This document shows, one piece after another, positions 1,857-27,124 of a DNA stretch of 64,000 bases. Each line of letters starts with the position of its first letter. Within the stretch, counting starts at the first letter, position 1. The DNA is from Reyranella soli (GTDB taxonomy: Bacteria > Pseudomonadota > Alphaproteobacteria > Reyranellales > Reyranellaceae), in assembly GCF_007992495.1 (NCBI RefSeq), contig NZ_BKAJ01000054.1, positions 1 through 64,000 of the forward strand. The letters run 5' to 3'. A model generated the notes under the pieces. That model saw nothing but the letters and a program-made list of their open reading frames with translations, was not told where the DNA came from and made no database searches. Made by a program: the position numbers and the translations under genes.

Positions 1857-3092
1857 ATGTCCCGCGCCGTCAGCCGCCGCCATTTCACCCTGGCCGCCGC
1901 GGCGCTTGCCGCGCCGGTCGTGCTGCCGCGCGAATCGCTGGGCAACGACGTCAAGGTCGACCTGGTCCATCTCTTCTCGGGCGCCGAGCATCCCATCCAG
2001 AAGGTCATAAAGGCCTTCAACGACAAGGGCACGGGCGTCACGGTGGTGAGCCGCCAGGACGGCACGACCTACGAGACCATCACCCAGAAGGCGATGGCCT
2101 CGATCGCCGCCGGTCGCGGGCCGGCGATGATGACGACCGGCTGGAAGCTCGGCGACTTCGCGCGCAAGACCCTGGGTGCGCAGGATTTCAGGCAGATCTT
2201 CGGGCCCGACCGCACCCAGGCGCTGCTCGCCAAGTTCCGCCCGCAGGTCCGTCCGCTCGCCGCCATCGGCGGCGTGCCGATCGGCCTGCCCTGGTCGATG
2301 AGCACGCCCGTCCTCTACATCAACCAGTCGCTGTGGACCGAGGCCGGCCTCGATCCCGCGGCCACGCCCAAGACGGTCGAAGAGCTCTATCCCATGGTGC
2401 GCCAGCTCCAGGACAAGACCGGCAAGCAAGGCCTCTGCTACGAGGTCAACGAGTGGCTGCCGCAGGCCTTCATCCAGAATGCCGGCGGCGATGTCATCGA
2501 CGGCGACGGCAGGCCGGTGATGGACAGCGCCGCCGCGGTGAAGGGCATCGAAGCCTTCGTCCAGCCGCGGCGCGACAACCTCTGGCGGGTCATGACCATC
2601 CCCGAGATGGTGGCGGCCTACCAGGCCGGCGCGATCGGCGTCATGGCCTCGTCGTCGGCGCGCCAGTCGGTGGTGCGCCAGGCCGCCAAGTTCGACCTGC
2701 GCCTGATCCAGATGCCGGGCCTCGCGGGCCTGCCGCGCCGCATGAACTCGGGCGGCAACTTCCTCGCCGTCTATTCCAAGGTGAAGGAACAGCAGGACGG
2801 CGCCTACAAGTTCATGGAGTTCGTCACCAGCAAGGAAGGCTTCGAGATCTGGCTGGAGACGGGCTACCTCAACGTCACCACCAACGACATCCCTGTGCGT
2901 CCCGGCAGCGAGGCGGCGCAGGCGCAGATGGAAGGCGGGCTCACCAGCGAGACGATCTGGCCGGGCGCCCGCGGGCTGGAAGCCCTCACCGTGCACATCG
3001 ACTGGATCACCAAGATCGTCAACGGCGCGGTCTCGGTGCCGGACGGCCTGCGCAGCGATCGCGCCGCCATCGACAAGCTGATCGCGGCATGA
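1857..3092 (+). CDS. ABC transporter substrate-binding protein, sugar/glycerol-phosphate type (family 1)
   Basis: This is a 411-aa periplasmic binding protein of the UgpB/MalE class. It starts with a twin-arginine signal (S6-R-R-H-F) and a hydrophobic alanine-rich stretch, so export through Tat is likely. The mature part has the FSGAEHP and INQSLWTEAGLDP elements seen in binding proteins for sugars and glycerol-3-phosphate derivatives. An ATG with GGGAGG at a good distance supports this start. Its stop overlaps the ATG of the first permease (ATGA), giving a tight binding protein-permease-permease operon. The actual ligand cannot be told from the sequence. Confidence 0.88.
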   Translation: MSRAVSRRHFTLAAAALAAPVVLPRESLGNDVKVDLVHLFSGAEHPIQKVIKAFNDKGTGVTVVSRQDGTTYETITQKAMASIAAGRGPAMMTTGWKLGDFARKTLGAQDFRQIFGPDRTQALLAKFRPQVRPLAAIGGVPIGLPWSMSTPVLYINQSLWTEAGLDPAATPKTVEELYPMVRQLQDKTGKQGLCYEVNEWLPQAFIQNAGGDVIDGDGRPVMDSAAAVKGIEAFVQPRRDNLWRVMTIPEMVAAYQAGAIGVMASSSARQSVVRQAAKFDLRLIQMPGLAGLPRRMNSGGNFLAVYSKVKEQQDGAYKFMEFVTSKEGFEIWLETGYLNVTTNDIPVRPGSEAAQAQMEGGLTSETIWPGARGLEALTVHIDWITKIVNGAVSVPDGLRSDRAAIDKLIAA

Positions 3093-3991
3093 CGACGGCG
3101 TGGCGAGGGGCCTGGCGACGCCTCGCCGGCTCGCCCTGGCTGTTCGCCGGCCCTGCCGTTGCCGCCGCGATCCTCTTCGTGTGGCTGCCCATGGCCTCGA
3201 CCCTGGGCCTGTCGTTCTTCGACTGGAGCCTGCTCCGCCAGGAAGCGACCTGGCGCGGCCTCGATCACTATCGCGGCACGCTCGCCAATCCCGACTTCCA
3301 TCTCGCCCTGGTCAACACCGGCGTCTACCTCGCGGCGCTGCTGCCCTTGCAGGTCGGCATTCCTCTGGTGCTGGCCTTCGCCCTGGTGCGCGTCAAGGCG
3401 AAGGCGACGGGTCGCCTCTATCGCACCGCCCTGTTTGCGCCGTCGGTTCTCTCCTTCCCCGTCGCCGCGGTCGTATGGCTCTGGCTGTTCAACCCGACGG
3501 TGGGGTTCCTCAACACGCTGGGCGGCGCGGTCGGCCTGCCGCCGCAACGCTGGTTGACCGATCCCGATATCGCCATCTGGAGCGTCATCATCGTCGCCTT
3601 CTGGAAAAGCTTCGGTCTCAACCTGCTGATCTTTTTGGCCGCCCTCGCCAACGTGCCGACCGACGTCACCGAGGCGGCGCGCATCGACGGCGCGAGCCCG
3701 CTGCGCCAGGCCATCGACATCGAGCTGCCGCTGATCTCGCCCGCCCTGTTCTTCGCCGTCGTGACCACGATCATCGTCGTGCTCGACGAGATCGTGGGCG
3801 CCGTCGACGTGCTGACCGAGGGCGGGCCCTACCGCACCTCGAGCAACCTTCTCTACTTCCTTTACGAGCGCGGCTTTCGCCATTTCCAGTTCGGCGAGGC
3901 GGCCGCGGTCGCCGTGCTGATCGCGGCCATCGTGGCCGGCGTCACCTGGGCGCAATTCCGCTTCGGGGAGCGGCATGTCCACTACGACTGA
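3089..3991 (+). CDS. ABC transporter permease, UgpA/MalF type
   Basis: A 300-aa inner-membrane permease with six predicted hydrophobic segments. The EAA loop, which contacts the ATPase, reads EAARIDGASPLRQ near residue 195. The ATG overlaps the stop of the binding-protein gene (ATGA), so the two are probably translationally coupled. It pairs with the following permease to form the membrane channel of a carbohydrate-type importer. Confidence 0.9.
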   Translation: MTTAWRGAWRRLAGSPWLFAGPAVAAAILFVWLPMASTLGLSFFDWSLLRQEATWRGLDHYRGTLANPDFHLALVNTGVYLAALLPLQVGIPLVLAFALVRVKAKATGRLYRTALFAPSVLSFPVAAVVWLWLFNPTVGFLNTLGGAVGLPPQRWLTDPDIAIWSVIIVAFWKSFGLNLLIFLAALANVPTDVTEAARIDGASPLRQAIDIELPLISPALFFAVVTTIIVVLDEIVGAVDVLTEGGPYRTSSNLLYFLYERGFRHFQFGEAAAVAVLIAAIVAGVTWAQFRFGERHVHYD

Positions 3992-4892
3992 GACTCTCAC
4001 GGAGCGCGGACCTCCAGGTCCGCTCATGACTCGTGATGCGGACCTGGAGGTCCGCGCTCCGATGCGCTTCCGGCACGGCAGCCAAATCGTGCTGCACATC
4101 GCCTTCATCGTCGCCTGCCTGGCGACGCTCTTCCCGTTGGTCTGGATGCTGCGCACGGCCTTCGCGCCGCCTCACGACGTGTTCCGCGCGACGATGTCGC
4201 TCTGGCCCGAGAATGCGACGCTGGCCAATTTCACCGCCGCCTTCCGCCTGCATCCCGTCGGCACCTGGTTCGTGAACTCGGTCGTGGTCGCAGGCGCGAT
4301 CACCTTCGGCAAGCTCGCGGTGTCGGTACCGGCGGCGTTCGCCTTTGCGGTGATGAGCTTTCGCGGCCGCGATGCTGTCTTCGCTTTGGTGGTCGGCACC
4401 ATGACAGTGCCCTACGTCATCACCTTGCTGCCGACCTATGTGGCCGTGGCCAGCATCGGACTGTACGACACGCTGACCGGCGTCGTCGTGCCGGCGATCG
4501 GTCATTGCGGCTTCGTCGTCTTCTTCCTGCGCCAAGCCTTCAAGGCGCTGCCGCGCGAGCTGTTCGAGGCGGCTCGCATCGATGGTGCGGGGCCATGGCG
4601 GCAGATGCTCACCATCGCGTTGCCCAACATCTGGGGCGCCGTGGCGGCCATGGCGGTGCTGTCGTTCCTCGGTGCGTGGAACCTCTACCTGTGGCCGCAC
4701 CTCATCCTGGATTCGACAGAGCACAAGACCCTGTCGATCGGCCTGAAGCTGTTTGCGACCACGGGCGAACAAGGCGGCGATTGGGGGCCGTTAATGGCGA
4801 CCGCCCTGCTCGCCGCCTTGCCGGTGGTGCTGCTTTACCTGATGGCGCAGCGACAGCTCGTGTCGGCCTTCGCCACCTCAGGCATACGCTGA
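3975..4892 (+). CDS. ABC transporter permease, UgpE/MalG type, with a palindromic repeat in its 5' coding part
   Basis: The second permease subunit, 305 aa, has six membrane segments and the EAA loop FEAARIDGAGPWRQ near residue 196. The ATG at 3975 overlaps the preceding permease by 17 bases. Codons 9-29 come from a perfect 60-bp inverted repeat (4001-4060) that adds exactly 20 codons without breaking the frame. Relatives would normally begin near MRFRHGSQIVLH, so translation could instead start at 4063. No ATPase gene follows; the operon ends here and the importer may share an ATPase from elsewhere. Confidence 0.88.
   Translation: MSTTTETLTERGPPGPLMTRDADLEVRAPMRFRHGSQIVLHIAFIVACLATLFPLVWMLRTAFAPPHDVFRATMSLWPENATLANFTAAFRLHPVGTWFVNSVVVAGAITFGKLAVSVPAAFAFAVMSFRGRDAVFALVVGTMTVPYVITLLPTYVAVASIGLYDTLTGVVVPAIGHCGFVVFFLRQAFKALPRELFEAARIDGAGPWRQMLTIALPNIWGAVAAMAVLSFLGAWNLYLWPHLILDSTEHKTLSIGLKLFATTGEQGGDWGPLMATALLAALPVVLLYLMAQRQLVSAFATSGIR
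4001..4060. repeat. Perfect 23-bp inverted repeat with 14-base loop inside a permease gene
   Basis: The left arm (4001-4023) and right arm (4038-4060) are exact reverse complements; the arm core is GCGGACCTCCAGGTCCGC. Related elements with the same CCTCCaGGcCCGC core and a TCATGA-like loop lie at 30288-30345, 54884-54950 and 61689-61712, all between convergent genes. This copy is the only one within a coding sequence, and its length is a multiple of three. Confidence 0.93.
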
Positions 4893-20726: not shown

Positions 20727-20805
20727 CTGTCGTCCTGAGCGCAGCGAAGGACCTCATCGCCGTCTGCAATCGGCATGAGATCCTTCGGTGCGCTCAGGAT
20801 GACAG
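20727..20805. repeat. Intergenic inverted repeat of the GTC(A/G)TCCTGAGCG family
   Basis: The arms (20727-20762 and 20771-20805) are near-perfect reverse complements, with outer ends CTGTCGTCCTGAGCG and CGCTCAGGATGACAG. It sits between the convergent TauE and GST genes and even supplies the stop codon of the latter (20794-20796). The position suggests a bidirectional terminator. Related copies are at 52257-52356 and 57806-57880. Confidence 0.88.
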
Positions 20806-26961: not shown

Positions 26962-27124
26962 CTTTCCTTTCCTCCCCCGTCATACGGGGGAGGATACAGG
27001 AGGGGGCAGGCCACGCGCAGGATGATGGTCAGTTTCAGATCATGATCTCTAGCCTGGAGAGATCGTCCCTGCGGCTTTACCCCTCCTGTATCCTCCCCCG
27101 TATGACGGGGGAGGAATAAGAAGG
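26962..27124. repeat. Long inverted repeat with hairpin arms between the dehydrogenase and hydrolase genes
   Basis: Two arms (about 26969-27006 and 27079-27118) are near-perfect reverse complements, and each arm is itself a palindrome, CCTCCCCCGTCATACGGGGG and its partner. The 72-base middle has no clear structure. This REP-doublet-like element lies inside a presumed operon, so it could trim or stabilise the transcript and set different levels for the two genes. Confidence 0.88.

What the first reader, a model, noticed from the sequence alone, without database searches (positions are those of the whole stretch)
4001..4060. Palindromic repeat inserted in frame within a permease gene
A perfect 23-bp inverted repeat with a 14-base loop adds 20 codons to the N-terminus of the UgpE-type permease without breaking the frame, similar in concept to Rickettsia palindromic elements. 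All related copies here are intergenic. Either the peptide is tolerated before the first helix, or translation moves to the ATG at 4063.
Basis: seen in the sequence. Interest (0 to 1): 0.68.

Follow-up and report, generated by a model that had tools for sequence, protein, structure and literature searches.

The report
Mobile hairpin repeat inside permease gene
A short hairpin-shaped mobile DNA repeat, present at about a hundred sites in this bacterium's genome, has landed inside the start of a nutrient-transporter gene without breaking it, so it most likely adds 20 extra amino acids to the protein; this is a new example of a known phenomenon.

Summary
Confirmed. Window 4001-4060 is a perfect 23-nt inverted repeat (24 with flanking C/G) with a 14-nt spacer, 26 nt into a UgpE-type permease gene (3975-4892), in frame (residues 10-29). 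It belongs to a family with about 100 hairpin sites in this Reyranella-type genome. Each arm is one end of a REP-associated tyrosine transposase (RAYT) unit of the genus, so the element is a REPIN (two inverted REPs without the transposase gene), not a Rickettsia palindromic element. A relative (G067/L061) has the same element at the same site and orientation, in frame after a GTG start, plus a further 30-nt palindrome that also keeps the frame; G078/L063 has a near-empty site. Relatives G067, G070 and G078 have no start codon where the window has ATG 4062, so the upstream overlapping start is ancestral; in G067 at least half the element is probably translated. In-frame copies are rare but not unique: one lies inside a hydantoinase shared by four genomes including this one, others extend C-termini. 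Intragenic REPs, including 20-30-residue dimers, were described before (PMC3733652). Real and well supported, but a new member of a known kind. Translation is inferred, not measured.

The parts
1857..3092 (+). ABC transporter substrate-binding protein, first gene of the operon
   Evidence: ORF and codon model; position upstream of two permeases; name by resemblance, not profiled
3089..3991 (+). UgpA-type permease; its stop codon TGA 3989-3991 lies inside the next gene (17-nt overlap)
3975..4892 (+). UgpE-type permease, 305 aa, BPD_transp_1 domain, carrying the insertion
   Evidence: Pfam PF00528 6.6e-18; NCBIfam UgpE model 155 bits, under its cut-off of 297
3965..3970 (+). GGGGAG, candidate ribosome-binding site of the overlapping start ATG 3975
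   Evidence: read in sequence; not tested
4001..4060 (+). REPIN: two inverted REP units with a 14-nt spacer; codes residues 10-29 ERGPPGPLMTRDADLEVRAP
   Evidence: RAYT-end identity
4001..4029 (+). left REP unit, identical to the left end next to the G067 RAYT (GGAGCGCGGACCTCCAGGTCCGCTCATGA); contains mini-hairpin 4006-4023
4038..4060 (-). right REP unit (inverted), mini-hairpin 4038-4055; GGAGG at 4046-4050 is buried in the long stem
4026..4028 (+). in-frame ATG in the spacer; GTG at the same codon in G067
4062..4064 (+). in-frame ATG directly after the element; no start codon there in G067, G070, G078

Best explanation
The 60-nt palindrome is a REPIN, a non-autonomous mobile unit made of the left and right ends of a Reyranella RAYT (IS200-like tyrosine transposase) unit without the gene. 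A copy inserted into the short, disordered N-terminal tail of an ABC permease, probably in an ancestor shared with G067. Because this copy is of the 60-nt length class and sits in one of the few open reading frames of the element, the gene stayed open, and the protein most likely carries 20 extra residues before its first membrane helix. Shown: the element, its family, its RAYT association, the near-empty and occupied orthologous sites, the open frame, and the conserved upstream start. Inferred: mobilisation by the RAYT, a single ancestral insertion, actual translation of the 20 residues, and near-neutrality for the transporter.
For: Family of about 103 hairpin sites in G000 and 92-124 in four relatives, absent from 42 of 65 genus genomes. 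RAYTs at 14 of 15 loci examined are flanked on both sides, and the fifteenth on one side, by palindromes of this architecture; the G067 RAYT has exactly this arm and passes NF047646 (86 bits, cut-off 80). Same site, orientation and spacer length class in G067, near-empty site in G078. After the overlapping start there is no ATG/GTG/TTG up to the TLFP motif in G070; only a codon inside helix 1 in G078; only the spacer GTG and a codon inside helix 1 in G067. A further palindrome in G067 adds 30 nt, again a multiple of three. Residues 1-30 are predicted disordered (pLDDT 45-55) and helix 1 begins at 31. Another in-frame internal copy sits in a hydantoinase linker in four genomes.
Against: No expression or protein data. 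The 60-nt class is common (4 of 25, 14 of 40, 5 of 13 two-armed copies in G000, G067, G070), so in-frame length alone is weak evidence of selection. In this strain ATG 4062 and ATG 4026 could be used. G070 and G029 have tails of similar length with unrelated sequence, so the history of the tail is not simple, and the G000/G067/G070 tree is unresolved. G000's own two RAYTs have other cognate palindromes.
Confidence: 0.82

Rival explanations
1. The element is not translated in this strain: initiation has moved to ATG 4062 (or 4026), so the palindrome is an untranslated spacer between two permease genes.
For: ATG directly after the element and a GGAGG 11 nt upstream of it; a paralogous permease in this genome (C40) and in G019 has family members lying untranslated just before its start; PMC3733652 warns that many 5' REPs are untranslated.
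Against: The GGAGG is inside a very stable stem. The overlapping start is conserved and is the only usable one in G070 and, outside helix 1, in G078; G067 offers only the spacer GTG or a TTG inside helix 1 as an alternative. Both coding copies keep the frame open, over 60 and 90 nt.
Confidence: 0.15
2. The hairpin was retained because it acts in the mRNA, setting the expression ratio of the two permeases, with the added residues a tolerated side effect.
For: Exceptionally stable RNA fold (-86.2 vs mean -53.4 kcal/mol, z -8.4); arms differ at 1 of 43 positions between G000 and G067 while third codon positions in the gene match at only 69%.
Against: Shared intergenic copies at unrelated genes show similar arm conservation, so it looks like a property of the family; close relatives lack the element in the same operon.
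Confidence: 0.2
3. Independent insertions at the same spot in G000 and G067 rather than one ancestral insertion.
For: Arms are as fresh as unlinked copies; G070 lacks it and the three-way tree is unresolved.
Against: Same base-exact site relative to the start, same orientation, same spacer length class; several intergenic sites are also shared.
Confidence: 0.15
4. It is a Rickettsia palindromic element or a relative of one.
For: In-frame palindromes in unrelated proteins.
Against: RAYT-linked ends; no CGTC or GTAG tag in the element; PMC3733652 counts rickettsial RPE-4/6 among CGTC repeats that lack a dedicated transposase.
Confidence: 0.02

Closest known systems
REPINs (REP doublets forming hairpins), Bertels and Rainey 2011, PMC3116915
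   Same: Two inverted REP units and a short spacer; long hairpin or two-hairpin clover fold; high copy number; cognate RAYT next to identical units; doublets well conserved.
   Different: Alphaproteobacterial family with TCATGA tails and no GTAG head; this copy is inside a gene.
Intragenic REPs and REP dimers, Di Nocera et al. 2013, PMC3733652
   Same: REP dimers in open reading frames coding 20-30 residues, at N-termini, C-termini or inside proteins; REP ends supplying stop codons.
   Different: Different repeat family and hosts; here an occupied relative, a near-empty site and a start-codon comparison support translation.
TIRtrons / TIRYTs (same paper)
   Same: RAYT-like gene flanked by repeats, some self-complementary, that lack GTAG.
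   Different: Their GGGGWSAS motif is not seen here; the Reyranella transposases were not aligned with the published TIRYT groups.
Rickettsia palindromic elements
   Same: Palindromes inserted in frame in protein genes.
   Different: No sequence relation shown; RPE-4/6 were reported as CGTC repeats without a dedicated transposase, whereas this family is tied to a RAYT.

Membership tests
REPIN / RAYT-associated REP | Two REP units in inverted orientation with a short spacer, able to form a hairpin | tested here: met
REPIN / RAYT-associated REP | High copy number, mostly extragenic | tested here: met
   about 103 hairpin sites in G000; nearly all fetched copies intergenic
REPIN / RAYT-associated REP | Cognate RAYT gene flanked by two inverted copies of the REP | tested here: met
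   G067 L142/L209 and G070 L210, NF047646 hit for L142; met in relatives, while G000's own RAYTs have other palindromes
GTAG REP superfamily | GTAG (GT[A/G]G) head of the classical REP | tested here: not met
   No such head in the element; so it is not filed in the GTAG superfamily
REPIN / RAYT-associated REP | Mobilised by the RAYT | not testable with these tools
   needs an excision or transposition assay
Rickettsia palindromic element | In-frame insertion in protein genes | tested here: met
Rickettsia palindromic element | CGTC tag of RPE-4/6 | tested here: not met
   No CGTC tag in the element (tag from PMC3733652)
Rickettsia palindromic element | Sequence similarity to RPE families | not tested
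   RPE sequences were not aligned
Intragenic REP | Lies wholly inside an open reading frame of a recognisable protein | tested here: met
   hydantoinase case
Intragenic REP | Translated in the cell | not testable with these tools
   start-codon comparison supports it

The most novel reading that the evidence does not exclude
The translated REPIN was kept because it works twice over: as an mRNA hairpin that tunes the second permease against the first, and as a peptide tail; the added in-frame palindrome in G067 would then be a further adjustment of the same control.
Probability: 0.1. Interest if true: 0.6.

Novelty: new member of a known kind. Interest (0 to 1): 0.38.

Why it matters
It documents, with occupied and near-empty orthologous sites, that a RAYT-linked mobile repeat of alphaproteobacteria can become protein sequence, as reported for Rickettsia and several other bacteria. 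The family's length classes (59 nt shifts the frame, 60 nt keeps it) and its few open frames make the genus a usable natural experiment on which insertions genes tolerate: so far only tails and linkers.

Tried and rejected
The idea that the coding copy had gained one base to restore the frame was dropped: 60-nt copies are common between genes. Twenty further copies, chosen because their peptide frame lies in a long open frame, turned out intergenic or only at a gene end, so an open frame alone is no evidence. Excess conservation of the arms as a sign of selection at this gene was weakened by similar conservation of shared intergenic copies. The hydantoinase model was poor overall (mean pLDDT 50); the insert falls in a low-confidence stretch (490-509) of its better-predicted C-terminal part, which is only a hint of a linker. 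One key paper on Rickettsia (Genome Res 2002) was not held.

Full report
What is there. The inverted repeat is as described: 4001-4023 and 4038-4060, perfect, spacer 14 nt, extended to 24 nt by C4000/G4061. The permease ORF 3975-4892 overlaps the stop of the upstream permease by 17 nt and runs through the repeat; residues 10-29 are ERGPPGPLMTRDADLEVRAP. The protein is a BPD_transp_1 permease most like UgpE.

The family. The element has 83 strand-wise matches in the genome. The mini-hairpin GCGGACCTNNAGGTCCGC occurs at 103 sites in G000 and 92-124 sites in G013, G032, G067 and G076, at 42 in the incomplete G070, and in none of 42 of the 65 genus genomes. Two-armed copies are mostly 59 nt (spacer TCATGATCATGAT), with a common 60-nt class. 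Copies often lie just past stop codons.

Identity. RAYT genes in the genus start right after a GGA[C/G]CGCGG-type hairpin ending in a TCATGA-like tail, and end right before its inverse; both sides are seen at 14 of 15 loci, the G015 one lacking it on the left in the 75 nt viewed. The stem bases change together between RAYT lineages. The G067 RAYT carries exactly the arm seen in the window and passes the REP-associated tyrosine transposase model. The window element equals left end plus right end without the gene, that is a REPIN as defined in PMC3116915. It folds as one long hairpin, and each half alone as a small hairpin.

The site in relatives. L061 (same sequence as G067's locus L068): GTG start, same element at the same codon, same orientation, 60-nt core with a further palindromic stretch of net 30 nt in the right arm; frame open throughout. 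L063 (counterpart of G078): MSTTTDAAPSRRGGQ, near-empty. L062 (G070) and L067 (G029): no element, unrelated tails of 30-32 residues. The 55% relatives have short tails. The DNA tree leaves G000, G067 and G070 as a trichotomy.

Start of translation. G070 has no ATG, GTG or TTG after the overlapping start up to the TLFP motif in helix 1; G078 has only a GTG inside the helix; G067 has a GTG in the spacer and a TTG in the helix. The overlapping start is therefore ancestral, though its conservation is partly forced by the codons of the overlapping permease. In G067 translation must include the second half of the element unless the helix TTG is used. In G000 ATG 4062 remains possible, but its GGAGG lies in the stem of a hairpin (fold z -8.4). 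Residues 1-30 are modelled with low confidence and helix 1 from 31, which fits tolerance.

Other coding copies. An internal copy lies in the C-terminal domain of a hydantoinase A in G000, G070, G076 and G032, in the same reading frame (ERGPPGPLM in G070 and G076), in a linker whose length and sequence vary in G011 and G078. In a GntR/FCD regulator G067 has no element, G076 stops inside it, and G000 reads through to give a tail of about 40 residues. LysR, CofC-like and MFS genes, and the G067 RAYT itself, end inside or next to copies, which supply the stop in several cases. Twenty further candidates with open frames were intergenic or only touched a gene end. In-frame read-through copies are thus a few among about a hundred.

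Chance of frame. For a 60-nt copy only two of six orientation-by-frame combinations are open, and 23 of 78 two-armed copies in three genomes are 60 nt, so roughly one insertion in ten would be tolerated by frame alone. Being in frame is therefore unremarkable for a survivor.

Conservation. Arms differ at 1 of 43 comparable positions between G000 and G067, against 84% nucleotide and 69% third-position identity in the permease. Shared intergenic copies show much the same, so this does not single out the permease copy.

Comparison with the literature. PMC3733652 already reports REPs inside genes, dimers coding 20-30 residues, REP-supplied stop codons, and the caution that many N-terminal cases may be untranslated. 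The present case adds a family, hosts, a near-empty site and a start-codon argument. A text search for Reyranella with palindromes found nothing relevant, within the held library only.

Verdict. Real, explained, ordinary in kind. The weak link is the lack of protein data.

Noticed in passing
L189:945-2699 (-); L197 (G000:C219): Hydantoinase A with an internal in-frame REPIN in its C-terminal domain, shared by four genomes; the mini-hairpin of one arm has changed in a compensatory way.
   Followed up: partly
L142 (G067:C79): RAYT gene flanked by the exact window element and ending inside it (GARTSRSAS then stop).
   Followed up: yes
L117 (G000:C37), L226, L227: GntR/FCD regulator: no element in G067, stop inside the element in G076, full read-through tail in G000.
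   Followed up: yes
L061:3070-3105: Further palindromic stretch (net 30 nt) in the right arm of the G067 permease copy, seen in no other locus among those fetched at the time.
   Followed up: partly
L039:2080-2176; L019:1440-1545: A paralogous UgpE-type permease has family members in the gap before its start codon, in G000 and in G019 (different family members).
   Followed up: partly
window 26969-27116: Intergenic 55-nt imperfect inverted repeat of another kind.
   Followed up: no
window 20727-20805: 31-nt inverted repeat of a different palindrome type (CCTGAGCGCAGCGAAGGA) between convergent genes.
   Followed up: no
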